Positions 26,154-60,662 of a DNA stretch of 64,000 nucleotides are shown here, one piece after another; the first letter of the stretch is position 1, and each line of letters opens with the position of its first letter. The stretch is taken from NCBI GenBank assembly GCA_018384595.1, contig JAHAYO010000018.1, forward strand, positions 62,001-126,000, given 5' to 3'. Source of the stretch: Thiopseudomonas sp. GTDB lineage: Bacteria > Pseudomonadota > Gammaproteobacteria > Pseudomonadales > Pseudomonadaceae. Made by a program: the position numbers and the translations under genes. The notes below the pieces were generated by a model. That model searched no databases. It was not told the origin of the DNA and worked only from the letters and a program-made list of their open reading frames with translations.

Positions 26154-26687
26154 TCATAGGTCCGGTGGCAGCGTGCAGAGGGTGTGCAGTGTACCTACCC
26201 TAAAGCGTGACGGGCAGCCATCTGCGTGACCTTTTCAGCCTTGCGCGCCGCTCATCCTTTGGTCGGTATCGACTGAGCAGCGTGTGTGCACGTCGCCTGT
26301 CATGCATCGGCAAAGTGGTGCAAGCAGTCTCACGGATGGAGGGGGGCTGCAGCGTTGCTTAACTAGATAAATGGATATCGAGCTATCGGCTGCATGCTAA
26401 TAGATACCTTGCTAAGCTATTGTTTTTAAATGATTGCGTGTCTTAGCTAAGGGTTTTTATACGGGTGGCGCATGTGGGTTTTGTTGGCTGGCTCGAGTGC
26501 AAGCATGCTGGCTGGGCTTTCTCGGTGGCGCTCTGGTTAGCTATGTGTGCTACTTGCTAGCTTGCTCATAAGACTAATGTCGGGGCTTTCTAAACCGCTG
26601 CACATTTTGCAATATTCCGCCCCGTAAGCGCTCCAGGCCATGGCCGGCAGGAGCAGTACGACAATAAAAATGAGCGGAGTACGCACT

Positions 26688-26948
26688 ATGGTCGATAAAG
26701 AAGTAGCGCAGGCATATTGGAAGGCGAACCTTCGCCTGATCATGTCCTGTCTGGCTGTTTGGGCTTTCGTGGGATATGGCATTGCCATTTTCCTGCGTCG
26801 AGCCCTGTCCGACATCACCTTTGGTGGTGTCGACATCGGGTTCTGGTTTTCCCACCAGGGCGCCATCATCAGCTTCGTTGGTCTGGTATTTTTCTACGCC
26901 TGGCGTATGAACCAGATCGACAAGCATTTCGGCATGAGCGAGGACTAA
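26688..26948 (+). CDS. DUF4212 domain protein, symporter small subunit (copy 1)
   Basis: VDKEVAQAYWKANLRLIMSCLAVWAFVGYG...; 5 nt upstream of symporter. Confidence 0.88.
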   Translation: MVDKEVAQAYWKANLRLIMSCLAVWAFVGYGIAIFLRRALSDITFGGVDIGFWFSHQGAIISFVGLVFFYAWRMNQIDKHFGMSED

Positions 26949-26952
26949 GATC

Positions 26953-28722
26953 ATGAGTCAGTTTGCTGTAAACCTGATTTTCATTGGCCTGTCCTTTGCG
27001 CTGTACATCGGTATTGCGCTCTGGTCTCGGGCCGGCTCCACCAAGGAGTTCTATGTCGCGGGCGGCGGTATTCACCCAATCACCAACGGCGTCGCTGTTG
27101 CCGGTGACTGGATGTCAGCAGCCTCCTTCTTATCCATGGCTGGTATGGTGGCCTTTATGGGTTACACGGGCTCCGCGTTCCTGATGGGCTGGACCGGCGG
27201 TTACATTCTGCTGGCCATGCTGCTGGCACCGTATCTGCGTAAGTTCGGCAAGTACACCGTGCCTTCTTTCGTGGAAGACCGTTATCAGAGCAAGCCTGCC
27301 CGTATGATTGCGGTGGTCAGCCTGCTGTGTATCTCGCTGACCTACATGATTGGCCAGATGACCGGTTCCGGTGTGGTATTTGCCCGCTTCCTGGAAGTAT
27401 CGGTTGATGCCGGTATCTGGATTGCTGCGGGTATTACCTTCTTCTACGCCGTATTGGGCGGTATGAAGAGTGTGACCTACACCCAGGTAGCTCAGTACTG
27501 CGTACTGATTGTTGCCTTCTTGGTACCACCGATCTTCATCTCCTTCCAGATGACCGGCAACCCCGTTCCTCAGCTGGGCATGATCAGTGAAGTAACCGGT
27601 GAGGACGTATATGTCATCGCCAAGCTGAACAGTGTTCTGAGAGATCTGGGCTTTGCCGAGTACACCGCCTATGCCGCTGATCCGCTGAACCATTTTCTGC
27701 TGACTGCCACCCTGATGGTGGGTACTGCTGGTTTGCCGCATGTGATCATCCGCTTCTTCACCGTACCCAAAGTGGCTGACGCCCGTTGGTCCGCTGGCTG
27801 GGCGCTGGTATTTATTGCGCTGCTTTACCTGACGGCTCCTGCGGTTGCTTCCATGGCGCGTCTGAACCTGATGGATACCGTGTATCCAAATGGCTCCCAG
27901 GCTAACCCCATTGATTATGAGCATCGTCCTGACTGGATGAACAACTGGATGGAAACTGGCCTGCTGAAGTTTGAAGATAAAAACGGTGACGGCCTGATCC
28001 AGTACTACAACGATGCCAACCCTGCATTCAAGGCAACTGCCGATGAGCGTGGCTGGGCTGGTAATGAGCTGACCGTAAACAACGACATCATGGTGATCGC
28101 CAACCCTGAAATTGCCAAGCTGCCAGGCTGGACCATTGGTCTGATGGCAGCGGGTGCGATTGCTGCGGCGCTGTCCACGGCAGCCGGTCTGTTGATGGCT
28201 ATCTCTTCGGCGGTGAGTCACGATATCGTTAAGGTTACGCTGAAACCTGACCTGAGCGAAAAAGCTGAGATGAACGTTGCACGTGTCGCGATGCTGGCAA
28301 CACTGGTGGTGAGTGCCTTCCTGGGTATGAATCCGCCGGGCTTTGCCGCCCAAACCGTAGCCCTGGCCTTCGGTCTGGCAGCCTCCACCCTGTTCCCTGC
28401 GCTGATGATGGGTATCTTCTCCAAGCGCGTGAACGGTAAGGGCGCGATTGCCGGCATGCTGGCGGGCATCACCTTGACCCTGGTATACATCTTCATGTTC
28501 AAGGGCTGGCTGTTCATTGCTGGGACCAACAACTTCCCAGATACCGCTGAGTACTGGTTCTTCGGTGTCAACCCACTGGGTATCGGTTTCTTCGGTGCGA
28601 TTGTTAACTTCATCGTGGCCTATGCGGTATCCTTGGCCACTGAGCCACCTCCCCAGGAAATTCAGGATCTGGTTGAAAGCGTGCGTTACCCGAAAGGTGC
28701 CGGCGCTGCGATTGATCACTGA
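26953..28722 (+). CDS. sodium:solute symporter family protein (VC_2705/ActP-like), copy 1
   Basis: MSQFAVNLIFIGLSFALYIGIALWSRAGSTKEFYVAGG; FAAQTVALAFGLAAS. Confidence 0.93.
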   Translation: MSQFAVNLIFIGLSFALYIGIALWSRAGSTKEFYVAGGGIHPITNGVAVAGDWMSAASFLSMAGMVAFMGYTGSAFLMGWTGGYILLAMLLAPYLRKFGKYTVPSFVEDRYQSKPARMIAVVSLLCISLTYMIGQMTGSGVVFARFLEVSVDAGIWIAAGITFFYAVLGGMKSVTYTQVAQYCVLIVAFLVPPIFISFQMTGNPVPQLGMISEVTGEDVYVIAKLNSVLRDLGFAEYTAYAADPLNHFLLTATLMVGTAGLPHVIIRFFTVPKVADARWSAGWALVFIALLYLTAPAVASMARLNLMDTVYPNGSQANPIDYEHRPDWMNNWMETGLLKFEDKNGDGLIQYYNDANPAFKATADERGWAGNELTVNNDIMVIANPEIAKLPGWTIGLMAAGAIAAALSTAAGLLMAISSAVSHDIVKVTLKPDLSEKAEMNVARVAMLATLVVSAFLGMNPPGFAAQTVALAFGLAASTLFPALMMGIFSKRVNGKGAIAGMLAGITLTLVYIFMFKGWLFIAGTNNFPDTAEYWFFGVNPLGIGFFGAIVNFIVAYAVSLATEPPPQEIQDLVESVRYPKGAGAAIDH

Positions 28723-30102: not shown

Positions 30103-31851
30103 TTATGGGTAACGTACACGACGTACCATCTCCTGAATCTCTTCACTTGGCTTCTCGGTAGCGTTGGACACTACGATGGCGACAGTGAAGTTGATTACGG
30201 CACCGATACACCCGAAGGACAGCGGCGAGATGATACCGAACAGGTAGTATTCAGGGCTGTTCGGAAAGGTGTTGGTGCCAGGGATGAAGAACCAGCCCAG
30301 GTACAGGAAGATATACACCAGGGTGGCGCCTGCACCGGCCAGCATGCCGCATACCGCGCCCTTGCTGTTGATGCGACGGATAAAGATACCCATCATCAGG
30401 CAGGGGAAGATCGAGGACGCGGCGATACCAAAGGCCAGGGCTACGGTTTGCGCGGCAAAGCCGGGCGGGTTGAGTCCAAGCCAGGTAGCGATGGAGATCG
30501 CACCGACCATCGAAATACGCGCATAGAGCATTTCAGTTTTTTCTGAAATATGCGGCATCAGTGTGTTCTTCAGCAGGTCATGACTGACTGCAGAGGAGAT
30601 GGCCAGCATCAGACCGGAAGCGGTAGACAGAGCCGCAGCAATACCACCCGCAGCAATCAGGCCGATAATCCAGCCAGGCATGTTGGCAATTTCCGGCAGG
30701 GCCAGAACCAAGATGTCGTTGTTTACAACCAGCTCATTACCTTCCCACTCAGCAGGAGCAACGAAGTCCTTGTTCGGGGTTGGCAGGGTGCCGTCGTTGT
30801 AGAACTGGATGCGACCATCCTTGTTTTTATCTTCAAACTTCAGCAGACCGGTTTCTTCCCAGTTCTTGAACCACTGTGGACGCTCTTCATAGGACAGTGA
30901 AGGCTCGTGTACACCGTTTGGATAGATGTTATCCAGCAGGTTCATACGGCCCATGGCGGCTACAACAGGCGCTGTGGTGTAGAACAATGCGATGAACACC
31001 AGTGCCCAAGCAGCAGAACGACGGGCGTCCTTAATGTTAGGTACGGTGAAGAAGCGGATAATTACGTGTGGCAGACCAGCAGTACCAACCATCAGGGTCA
31101 GGGTGAACAGGGTCATGTTCCAGCGGTTGGATACGTCAGCCGTATAATCCTGGAAGCCCAGATCGCGTACCACTTCGTTCAGCTTCTGCAGCATCGGAAT
31201 GCCGGATTCAGCATGGGCACCAATGAAGCCGGTTTGTGGCAGGAAGTGACCGGTTACCATCAGCGACAGGTAAACCGCAGGAATCAGGAAGGCCAGGATC
31301 AGTACGATGTACTGGGCCACCTGGGTGTAGGTTACACCTTTCATGCCGCCGAGTACTGCGTAAGCAAATACCACGAAGGATGAAATGATCAGTCCTGTGG
31401 ACACCTTCACTTCCAGGAAGCGGGCAAAAGCAACACCAGCACCGGTCATCTGGCCGATTACATAGGTCAGCGAGATGATGATCAGGCAGACAACCGCGAC
31501 AACACGGGCTGCTTTACTGTCATAACGCTTACCAACGAAGTCGGGCACAGTGTAGGTACCGAAGCGGCGCAGGTAAGGAGCCAGCAGGGTTGCTAGCAGT
31601 ACATAGCCACCGGTCCAGCCCATGATGAACGCGGAGTTCACATAGCCGACCGAGATCAGGCCGGCAACGGAAATGAACGAGGCAGCAGACAGCCAGTCGG
31701 CCGCAGTCGCCATGCCGTTCATCACCGGGTGAACTTCACCACCGGCGATATAGAACTCGCGGGTTGATTTTGCACGAGCCCAGATTGCAATCCAGGTATA
31801 GATTGCAAAGGAACCCATTACAAAAATCAGGTTAATAGCAAATTGGCTCAT
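30103..31851 (-). CDS. sodium:solute symporter family protein (VC_2705/ActP-like), copy 2
   Basis: MSQFAINLIFVMGSFAIYTWIAIWARAKSTREFYIAGG; homologous over full length to copy 1. Confidence 0.93.
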   Translation of the reverse strand: MSQFAINLIFVMGSFAIYTWIAIWARAKSTREFYIAGGEVHPVMNGMATAADWLSAASFISVAGLISVGYVNSAFIMGWTGGYVLLATLLAPYLRRFGTYTVPDFVGKRYDSKAARVVAVVCLIIISLTYVIGQMTGAGVAFARFLEVKVSTGLIISSFVVFAYAVLGGMKGVTYTQVAQYIVLILAFLIPAVYLSLMVTGHFLPQTGFIGAHAESGIPMLQKLNEVVRDLGFQDYTADVSNRWNMTLFTLTLMVGTAGLPHVIIRFFTVPNIKDARRSAAWALVFIALFYTTAPVVAAMGRMNLLDNIYPNGVHEPSLSYEERPQWFKNWEETGLLKFEDKNKDGRIQFYNDGTLPTPNKDFVAPAEWEGNELVVNNDILVLALPEIANMPGWIIGLIAAGGIAAALSTASGLMLAISSAVSHDLLKNTLMPHISEKTEMLYARISMVGAISIATWLGLNPPGFAAQTVALAFGIAASSIFPCLMMGIFIRRINSKGAVCGMLAGAGATLVYIFLYLGWFFIPGTNTFPNSPEYYLFGIISPLSFGCIGAVINFTVAIVVSNATEKPSEEIQEMVRRVRYP

Positions 31852-56811: not shown

Positions 56812-57306
56812 TTATGGGCTCAGGCGGTGCAGGCTGCTGTCTTGTGGACAGTGCATCAGTATATCAATCAGTGCGCGGCCATCGGGTAAAAGCAGGCTGG
56901 CGGCAGCAAGTTCGGCCAAAGGATACAGGACAAAAGGGCGCAGGTGCATCTGATAGTGGGGCACCTGCAGGCGCTCGTGTGCAATGACCTCATTGCCAAA
57001 CAGCAGAATATCCAAATCCAACGTGCGCGGTCCCCAGCGCTCGCCGGTACGCACCCGGCCATGGTCCTGCTCGATAGCCTGCAGCGCGTCCAAGAGTTGC
57101 AGCGGCTCAAGGGCTGTTTCCAGCAGGGCGACTGCATTGGTATAGCGCGGCTGGTCAGCTGGCCCTAGCGGGGCGCTGGAATACAGTGAAGACGTCTTGA
57201 GCAGCTGTGTGTGCGGCAGTTGGGCCATGGCCTGCAGGGCTTGGCGCAGTTGCACAGCCGGTAAACCCAGATTGCTGCCCAGCCCGATAAAAACCTGCAC
57301 ACTCAT
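56812..57306 (-). CDS. folK: HPPK (2-amino-4-hydroxy-6-hydroxymethyldihydropteridine pyrophosphokinase)
   Basis: VFIGLGSNLG; RWGPRTLDLDILLFG; PHYQMHLRPFVLYPL. Confidence 0.95.
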   Translation of the reverse strand: MSVQVFIGLGSNLGLPAVQLRQALQAMAQLPHTQLLKTSSLYSSAPLGPADQPRYTNAVALLETALEPLQLLDALQAIEQDHGRVRTGERWGPRTLDLDILLFGNEVIAHERLQVPHYQMHLRPFVLYPLAELAAASLLLPDGRALIDILMHCPQDSSLHRLSP

Positions 57307-58670
57307 TGCGGCGTACCTGCCTTGGCGGTCGAGCGTGTGTTGCGTTTGCGCGGGCGGCGGCTTTTGCGTACCGGCCCGCTTAGCTCGCTGATCATGCGGC
57401 GGCGGTTGCCCTCATCGGCAAACTGATAGTCAGTCCACCATTGGCCAAGCTGGCCGGTGTCTTCGCCGGCATCTTCACGCAGCAGCAAAAAATCATAGGC
57501 GGCGCGGAAGCGCTCATGGGCCAGTACCACATCGGCACGCTTGCCGTAACGGTAGGGCAGACGTTCTTGCAGCGACCAGATTTCTTGCATCGGCAGGGTA
57601 AAACGTTTGGGTATGGCCACCTGTTGCAGCTGTAACGGCAGTAGTTTATGCGCTGCTTTTTGCATAGCTGGAACCGGCGCTAGACCGTCGGCCTGATAGC
57701 GCGCGCACAGCGGGATCAAGGCCGGCCACAGCAGTGCAGCAAATAGAAAGGCCGGCGTGACCGTTTTGCCTTCACGCAAGCGCTGGTCGGTGTTACGCAG
57801 GGCCAGACGCACCAGCTCGGTGCTGTAGTCGGGGTCAGCATCCAGCTCGGGAGCTGTGTGTGGAAACAGCGGGGCAAACAGGCCGAATTGGCGCAGCAGC
57901 ATAAAGCTGTCTTCGGCGCTGCCGTTCAGAAACACCTTGAGCAGCTCGTCATACAGGCGTGCTGCAGGAATATCGCCCAGTAAATGCGCCAGTCGATAAA
58001 TGGGCTCAGCCGTTGCATCCGGCAGTTCGACGCCCAGCTTGGCGGCAAAACGTATGGCGCGCAGCATGCGCACTGGGTCTTCCAGGTAGCGAGTTTCCGG
58101 GTCGCCGATCAGGCGCAGCGTGCGCTGCTTGAGGTCGGCCAGACCATGGGTGAAATCGTGAATGATTTGGTTGGCCGGGTCGTAATACAGGGCGTTGATG
58201 GTGAAGTCGCGGCGCAGGGCATCGTCTTCCAGCGTGCCGTAGACATTGTCGCGCAGGATACGTCCGCTGCTGTCAGTCACCGAGTGGCCGGCAGCCGCAT
58301 CTTTGGCCGTATGGTTGCTGCGAAAGGTTGCTACTTCGATGGTTTCGCGGCCAAACAGCACATGCACCAAACGAAAGCGGCGACCAATAATGCGTGAGTT
58401 GCGAAACACGTCACGCACCTGCTCAGGCGTGGCGCTGGTGGCGACGTCAAAGTCTTTAGGTCGCTCGCCCAGTAGGGCATCGCGCACGCAGCCGCCAACC
58501 AGAAAGGCTTGGAAGCCGGCATCCTGCAGGCGCAGTGCCACAGAGACCGCGTTGCGGCTAAAACGGTCGGGTTGCAGGCCGTGTTCGGCCAACGTCAGGC
58601 GTTGTTCTTTGGGGCCGGGCGTGGCTTTCGGGCGTGGCTTTCGGAATGAGCGGATTAGTTTTTTCAGCAT
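57303..58670 (-). CDS. pcnB: poly(A) polymerase I
   Basis: FLVGGCVRDALLGERPKDFDVATSATPEQV; LRRDFTINALYYDP. Confidence 0.95.
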   Translation of the reverse strand: MLKKLIRSFRKPRPKATPGPKEQRLTLAEHGLQPDRFSRNAVSVALRLQDAGFQAFLVGGCVRDALLGERPKDFDVATSATPEQVRDVFRNSRIIGRRFRLVHVLFGRETIEVATFRSNHTAKDAAAGHSVTDSSGRILRDNVYGTLEDDALRRDFTINALYYDPANQIIHDFTHGLADLKQRTLRLIGDPETRYLEDPVRMLRAIRFAAKLGVELPDATAEPIYRLAHLLGDIPAARLYDELLKVFLNGSAEDSFMLLRQFGLFAPLFPHTAPELDADPDYSTELVRLALRNTDQRLREGKTVTPAFLFAALLWPALIPLCARYQADGLAPVPAMQKAAHKLLPLQLQQVAIPKRFTLPMQEIWSLQERLPYRYGKRADVVLAHERFRAAYDFLLLREDAGEDTGQLGQWWTDYQFADEGNRRRMISELSGPVRKSRRPRKRNTRSTAKAGTPQ

Positions 58671-58847
58671 GGCAGCCTGTCTGTGACGTCGAGCGGCAAT
58701 CCGTCTGTAGAGCGAACAGGCGGCGTGTATTGCTGGCGTGTGTCTATACAGGTGTGGCCGGCAAGGTACTCGGTGGTGAAAGGTAGGAAAATCATGCGGC
58801 GGATTCTAGCACCGCCAGCGTGCGGGGTGAATCTGATTCGAGGCAAT

Positions 58848-58870
58848 AAAAAAGGAGGCCTAGGCCTCCT
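58848..58870 (-). terminator. terminator of CrcZ-like transcript
   Basis: Minus strand AGGAGGCCTAGGCCTCCT-TTTTT; 18-nt perfect palindrome plus T-run. Confidence 0.85.
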
Positions 58871-59171
58871 CTTCGTATGCAGCTGTACGGTGTGTTGTTA
58901 TTGTTGTGACTGGGATTGTTGTTGTTTTTGTTGAGTCCCTGTGTTTGTGCATGCTGTTACTGAATGAAAATCAGCGGATTGCTTTGAATGCTGACGCGGT
59001 CAATACCTGCCGTTCGTGCCGTTGCCGGCTATTGTTATTGTTGTTGCGTTTCGTCAGGACTGAGGCAGTCCTCTTCAAAGTAATCAGTTGATTGCGGCTC
59101 CTGCTTGCTATTATTTTTACCGGAGACGGTGCTGTTATTGTTGTTTTATGCGTACTGTTATTTTTGTTATG
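58848..59171 (-). ncRNA. crcZ: CrcZ/CrcY-like Hfq/Crc-sequestering small RNA
   Basis: Five CA motifs on the minus strand (59168-59156, 59145-59133, 59046-59032, 58933-58916, 58908-58893), sigma-54 promoter, terminator, location upstream of pcnB. Confidence 0.82.
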
Positions 59172-59182
59172 TATAGAACAAA

Positions 59183-59197
59183 GCAGGTGGCGTGCCA
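59183..59197 (-). promoter_or_regulatory. sigma-54 promoter for CrcZ-like sRNA
   Basis: Minus strand TGGCACG-CCAC-CTGC. Confidence 0.8.
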
Positions 59198-59257
59198 TGT
59201 TTTGTATCTTTCTGTATTTTAAGTGTTTTGTTGTTTTTTTGGGCGAGTGTGGCGCAC

Positions 59258-59319
59258 AGGTAACACGCAAAGTGTTACCTGGCTGCACGCAGGCGTTACC
59301 GTTCGGCGCTGGGTAACGC
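59258..59319. promoter_or_regulatory. candidate CbrB-type enhancer dyads
   Basis: AGGTAACAC-gcaaa-GTGTTACCT and GCGTTACC-n11-GGTAACGC, about 60-120 nt upstream of the -24 element. Confidence 0.6.
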
Positions 59320-59327
59320 TGCCGTCA

Positions 59328-60489: not shown

Positions 60490-60565
60490 GGGTGATTAGC
60501 TCAGCTGGGAGAGCGTCTGCCTTACAAGCAGAATGTCGGCGGTTCGATCCCGTCATCACCCACCA
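60490..60565 (+). tRNA. tRNA-Val (TAC)
   Basis: GGGTGATTAGCTCAGC...CTTACAA...GGTTCGATCC...ATCACCCACCA. Confidence 0.95.
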
Positions 60566-60585: not shown

Positions 60586-60662
60586 GCAGTGGTAGTTCAG
60601 TTGGTTAGAATACCGGCCTGTCACGCCGGGGGTCGCGGGTTCGAGTCCCGTCCACTGCGCCA
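60586..60662 (+). tRNA. tRNA-Asp (GTC)
   Basis: GCAGTGGTAGTTCAGTTGG...CCTGTCACG...GGGTTCGAGTCCCGTCCACTGCGCCA. Confidence 0.96.

What the first reader, a model, noticed from the sequence alone, without database searches (positions are those of the whole stretch)
58848..59320. Unannotated CrcZ/CrcY-like sRNA locus upstream of pcnB
The 'empty' gap between rdgC and pcnB carries everything expected of a Crc/Hfq-titrating sRNA on the minus strand. It has five separate CA-rich motifs (AACAAAAATAACA, AACAACAATAACA, CAACAACAATAACAA, CAACAAAAACAACAACAA, CACAACAATAACAACA), a sigma-54 promoter (TGGCACG-N4-CTGC) and a perfect-palindrome terminator with a T-run. The predicted length is about 320 nt. In Pseudomonas aeruginosa crcZ lies directly upstream of pcnB, so synteny supports the call.
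Basis: partly seen in the sequence, partly recalled or inferred. Interest (0 to 1): 0.85.

Follow-up and report, generated by a model that had tools for sequence, protein, structure and literature searches.

The report
CrcZ decoy RNA gene before pcnB
The gap holds a gene for CrcZ, a small RNA that soaks up the RNA-binding proteins Hfq and Crc when good carbon sources run out; the RNA is of a known kind, but here its activator genes have moved elsewhere in the genome, and following it up showed the same gene arrangement in dozens of bacterial families where it was thought not to exist.

Summary
On the minus strand, 59171 to about 58848, lies a roughly 324-nt RNA gene with a sigma-54 box, six (ARN)n>=4 Hfq-binding stretches (six are reported for P. 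aeruginosa CrcZ), a conserved covarying core helix and a palindromic terminator. Rfam's CrcZ model matches over its full length (82.7 bits, E 2e-21) but falls below its 95-bit cut-off, which explains why the gene goes unannotated. The genome is a Thiopseudomonas-type MAG that also encodes CbrA, CbrB, Crc, RpoN and Hfq.

Verdict: a genuine CrcZ orthologue, a new member of a known kind. One twist: in Thiopseudomonas cbrAB has left the locus and rdgC stands in its place, yet promoter and enhancer are kept.

Wider result: outside Pseudomonadaceae, 34 of 41 sampled families of the same order (57 of 77 genomes) show cbrB, CbrB half-sites, sigma-54 box and A-rich RNA, with pcnB seen downstream in 50; crc sits beside pyrE in 17 of 20 loci inspected. 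A 2022 review calls CbrAB unique to Pseudomonadaceae. Transcription and Hfq/Crc binding were not tested here.

The parts
58848..59171 (-). crcZ RNA gene, about 324 nt (predicted +1 at 59171 or 59170)
   Evidence: Rfam RF01675 hit 59170-58818; sigma-54 spacing; terminator
59182..59197 (-). sigma-54 promoter TGGCACG-N4-CTGCT (-25/-24 GG at 59196/59195, -13/-12 GC at 59184/59183)
   Evidence: GG-N10-GC conserved in three congeners
59260..59318 (-). predicted CbrB enhancer: CGTTAC 59318-59313, GTAACG 59299-59294, GTAACA 59278-59273, TGTTAC 59265-59260
   Evidence: densest GTTAC/GTAAC cluster in the window, 4 in 80 bp against at most 2 elsewhere; subsite sequences from PMC6296734
59154..59168 (-). 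A-rich stretch 1, (ARN)5
59131..59145 (-). A-rich stretch 2, (ARN)5
59104..59118 (-).
59028..59045 (-). A-rich stretch 4, (ARN)6
58915..58932 (-). A-rich stretch 5, (ARN)6
58894..58905 (-). A-rich stretch 6, (ARN)4
59075..59085 (-). 5' arm of the conserved CrcZ core helix (GAUUACUUUGA)
   Evidence: invariant pairs plus G-C/A-U and U-A/C-G exchanges
58977..58987 (-). 3' arm of the core helix (UCAAAGCAAUC)
58848..58869 (-). intrinsic terminator GGAGGCCTAGGCCTCC followed by six T
58803..58831 (-). sigma-70-like promoter of pcnB after the crcZ terminator, well conserved in two congeners
57303..58670 (-). pcnB, poly(A) polymerase
   Evidence: TIGR01942, 526.6 bits
59331..60248 (-). rdgC, occupying the place that cbrAB has in Pseudomonas
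   Evidence: NF001461, 513.9 bits, matching from residue 21 of the listed ORF

Best explanation
This is the crcZ gene of a Thiopseudomonas species. When preferred carbon is scarce, CbrA activates CbrB; CbrB binds the half-sites at 59318-59260 and drives sigma-54 RNA polymerase from the box at 59197. The roughly 324-nt RNA carries six single-stranded (ARN)n stretches that bind the distal face of Hfq, with Crc as partner, drawing Hfq/Crc off the A-rich leaders of catabolic mRNAs and so relieving catabolite repression. Shown here: sequence features, homology, conservation, and presence of every protein of the circuit. Inferred from Pseudomonas work: transcription, regulation and Hfq/Crc titration. 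Particular to this genus: cbrAB has been separated from crcZ, so CbrB must act on it from a distant locus.
For: Full-length Rfam CrcZ match, E 2.3e-21; all three sampled congeners match, one above the cut-off at 102 bits. The CrcZ core motif lies upstream of pcnB in 77 of 80 named loci and only once in this window, at 59087. Core helix kept with compensatory changes in 10 sequences. A-rich stretches predicted 96% unpaired against 47% for the rest of the RNA; six ARN stretches, 0 of 5000 shuffles. CbrB half-sites at -121/-102/-81 from the box, as in PA7 (-124/-104/-82) and the congeners. CbrA and CbrB on contig C82, CbrB 74-84% identical in the congeners; Crc orthologue next to pyrE/rph, E 1e-121 to the crystallised P. 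aeruginosa Crc; RpoN and Hfq present. Mechanism of P. aeruginosa CrcZ: PMC4063720.
Against: Score is below Rfam's gathering threshold. No transcript data. No good IHF consensus between enhancer and box (best has two mismatches). The F1 and R1 subsites are one-base variants (CGTTAC, GTAACG), although a GTAACg subsite is functional at P. putida crcZ (PMC6296734).
Confidence: 0.94

Rival explanations
1. The A-rich segment is a long 5' leader of pcnB, not a free RNA: transcription from the sigma-54 box runs into pcnB and Hfq acts on pcnB expression.
For: Same strand, directly upstream of pcnB.
Against: A strong palindromic terminator with six T ends the A-rich segment, and a separate, conserved sigma-70-like promoter follows it.
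Confidence: 0.03
2. The segment encodes a short protein (ORF of 105 codons, 58971-59288, minus strand).
For: The ORF exists.
Against: It would begin upstream of the promoter and run through it, starts with GTG, and the alignment of congeners shows conserved A-rich and core blocks separated by indels of varied length; conservation follows RNA pairs.
Confidence: 0.01
3. A decaying CrcZ: the circuit is being lost in this small genome after cbrAB moved away.
For: Small genome (about 2.2 Mb), weak Rfam score, cbrAB displaced.
Against: Promoter, A-rich stretches, core helix and terminator are kept in four species and CbrB half-sites too; cbrA, cbrB, crc, hfq and rpoN are present as open frames.
Confidence: 0.02

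Closest known systems
CrcZ of Pseudomonas aeruginosa (Rfam RF01675; PMC4063720)
   Same: Position before pcnB, sigma-54 box, CbrB half-site spacing, six ARN stretches, core helix, terminator
   Different: About 324 nt instead of 407; below the Rfam cut-off; preceded by rdgC instead of cbrB
CrcY / CrcX (P. putida, P. syringae)
   Same: Same decoy kind
   Different: Those are additional copies; only one copy was found here, at the crcZ position
RsmY/RsmZ and CsrB/CsrC decoy RNAs (own knowledge)
   Same: Titration of a translational repressor by repeated binding sites
   Different: They bind RsmA/CsrA through GGA motifs; this one carries A-rich Hfq sites

Membership tests
CrcZ (RF01675) | Covariance-model match | tested here: inconclusive
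   82.7 bits over positions 1-398, E 2.3e-21, under the 95-bit cut-off; a congener scores 102.1
CrcZ (RF01675) | Directly upstream of pcnB | tested here: met
CrcZ (RF01675) | Neighbour, not essential: directly downstream of cbrB | tested here: not met
   rdgC is upstream; cbrAB is on contig C82. Usual in Pseudomonas, but not defining: extra family members (CrcY, CrcX) lie apart from cbrB and CbrB acts in trans
CrcZ (RF01675) | Sigma-54 promoter | tested here: met
CrcZ (RF01675) | CbrB subsites F1-R1-R2 upstream, about 20 bp apart | tested here: met
   compared with PMC6296734
CrcZ (RF01675) | Several (ARN)n>=4 stretches for Hfq | tested here: met
   six; six in P. aeruginosa
CrcZ (RF01675) | Conserved core helix | tested here: met
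CrcZ (RF01675) | Crc, Hfq, CbrAB, RpoN in the genome | tested here: met
CrcZ (RF01675) | Induction by poor carbon; binds and titrates Hfq/Crc | not testable with these tools
   needs experiments

The most novel reading that the evidence does not exclude
The CbrAB-CrcZ-Hfq/Crc circuit is not a Pseudomonadaceae speciality but ancestral to the whole order. In 34 of 41 sampled other families, the stretch downstream of cbrB (or upstream of pcnB) carries CbrB half-sites near -122/-101/-80, a TGGCAY-N6-TGC box and a fast-evolving A-rich RNA, sometimes in tandem copies, usually followed by pcnB. Most lie beyond the reach of Rfam's CrcZ model.
Probability: 0.85. Interest if true: 0.68.

Novelty: new member of a known kind. 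Interest (0 to 1): 0.5.

Why it matters
For the window itself it completes the annotation of a catabolite-repression circuit in Thiopseudomonas and shows that crcZ keeps its CbrB enhancer after cbrAB has moved away. The survey it prompted contradicts the published statement that CbrAB is unique to Pseudomonadaceae (PMC8871633). If the RNAs are expressed, Hfq decoy control of carbon use would be an order-wide system, testable in many environmental bacteria, and the Rfam family would need rebuilding.

Tried and rejected
Rfam at gathering thresholds finds only tRNAs in the window; the E-value mode was needed. A genome pattern scan with seven instead of six spacer bases was mistyped and its hits are irrelevant; it was repeated correctly. 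The simple terminator scan missed the real terminator, probably because its stem takes up the T-run. A single-sequence minimum-energy fold does not show the long-range core helix; the alignment does. The CRISPR-repeat match at 59217-59266 is chance (E 1.6). No coupling of RNA loss to Crc loss could be drawn: some families without the RNA still have Crc-like proteins (f43: G078, G109), and some genomes with an A-rich RNA gave no Crc hit at 1e-40 (f44; G125; G054).

Full report
OBSERVATION. Six (ARN)n>=4 stretches lie between 59168 and 58894, against a shuffled mean of 0.5, none antisense and at most three per 328 nt elsewhere in the window; AAYAAYAA occurs nine times, 0 of 2000 dinucleotide shuffles reaching that. 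The sigma-54 box at 59197 scores 11 of 12. The terminator is a perfect 16-base palindrome followed by six T.

IDENTITY. Rfam CrcZ matches 59170-58818 over all 398 model positions with 82.7 bits, E 2.3e-21, under the 95-bit gathering score, so a search at gathering thresholds leaves it out. All three sampled congeners have the match (87, 94 and 102 bits). The CrcZ core motif CTGATT-N2-TTTGRA occurs once in the window (59087) and upstream of pcnB in 77 of 80 named loci. An alignment of ten core regions keeps a helix, 59085-59075 with 58987-58977 here, in which Thiopseudomonas UUUGA/UCAAA replaces Pseudomonas UUUGG/CCAAA, a compensatory change, with further exchanges at the helix end. The A-rich stretches are predicted to be single-stranded.

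CONTROL REGION. CbrB subsites in P. putida are TGTTAC (F) and GTAACA (R), arranged F1-R1-R2 at 20-25 bp (PMC6296734). The window has CGTTAC, GTAACG, GTAACA and TGTTAC at -121, -102, -81 and -68 from the sigma-54 box; P. aeruginosa PA7 has half-sites at -140, -124, -104 and -82, and the congeners have them at matching places. No other place in the window has more than two GTTAC/GTAAC words within 80 bp.

CIRCUIT. The genome encodes CbrA (991 aa, histidine kinase with a long N-terminal region) and CbrB (receiver plus sigma-54 activator domain) together on contig C82, Crc beside rph and pyrE with E 1e-121 to the solved P. aeruginosa Crc, RpoN and Hfq. CrcZ is found once.

WHAT IS UNUSUAL HERE. 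In 74 of 80 named loci cbrAB precedes crcZ; in the three Thiopseudomonas-group loci and in the window rdgC does. Downstream of cbrB there is no A-rich RNA in G000, G002 and G003. Two further genomes of the family (G021, G036, one genus) also have crcZ at pcnB with cbrB far away. So crcZ stays with pcnB while cbrAB can leave.

BEYOND THE FAMILY. A review states that CbrAB is unique to Pseudomonadaceae and that the cbrA-cbrB-crcZ order has been described only in Pseudomonas and Azotobacter (PMC8871633). CbrB orthologues were nevertheless found in 122 of 139 genomes drawn evenly from the order. I read the region after cbrB, or before pcnB where the two are apart, in 77 genomes of 41 other families. 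The criterion was at least five A-rich motifs within 350 nt on the sense strand and a sigma-54-like box 15-90 nt before a motif with at least two CbrB half-sites within 220 bp upstream. 57 genomes in 34 families meet it; no antisense strand reaches five motifs; half-site positions pile up near -123, -102 and -81; pcnB was seen downstream in 50. Full-length CbrA homologues (40-52% identity over about 975 residues) precede cbrB in six of six checked. Crc homologues lie beside pyrE in 17 of 20 loci. The CrcZ core helix is recognisable in two of these families, f2 and f22; elsewhere only A-rich stretches and control elements remain recognisable. Paper searches for CrcZ or CbrB together with several other taxa found no report of this; most subscription papers are not held, so prior description cannot be excluded.

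VERDICT. The window finding is a CrcZ orthologue: new member of a known kind, well supported, with a displaced activator operon as its peculiarity. The order-wide distribution is the part worth pursuing.

Noticed in passing
genomes of 34 families, e.g. L172-L235, L153-L168: cbrB, CbrB half-sites, sigma-54 box and A-rich RNA, usually followed by pcnB, outside Pseudomonadaceae; tandem RNA copies in several (e.g. L168, L181-L183).
   Followed up: partly
L157 (G051:C160:6500-9500), 1271-1500: A second A-rich RNA with sigma-54 box and CbrB half-sites away from cbrB, a CrcY-like paralogue in another family.
   Followed up: no
window 26663-26690 (+) and 32182-32118 (-): A-rich sites (AATAAAAA; CACAAAAACAATTAAA) just before the starts of two small membrane-protein genes, each followed by a sodium/solute-symporter-like gene (26953-28722 +, 30103-31851 -): candidate Hfq/Crc targets relieved by this CrcZ.
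   Followed up: partly
window 58831-58803 (-): Well conserved sigma-70-like promoter (TTCACC-17-TAGAAT with TG) between the crcZ terminator and pcnB.
   Followed up: partly
L223-L225 (family f44): cbrB-pcnB gap with CbrB half-sites and A-rich stretches but no recognisable GG-N10-GC box before them, and no Crc hit at 1e-40 in these three genomes: possibly a different promoter or an Hfq-only decoy.
   Followed up: no
window 60490-60565 and 60586-60662 (+): tRNA-Val(tac) and tRNA-Asp(gtc) next to rdgC, on the other strand.
   Followed up: no
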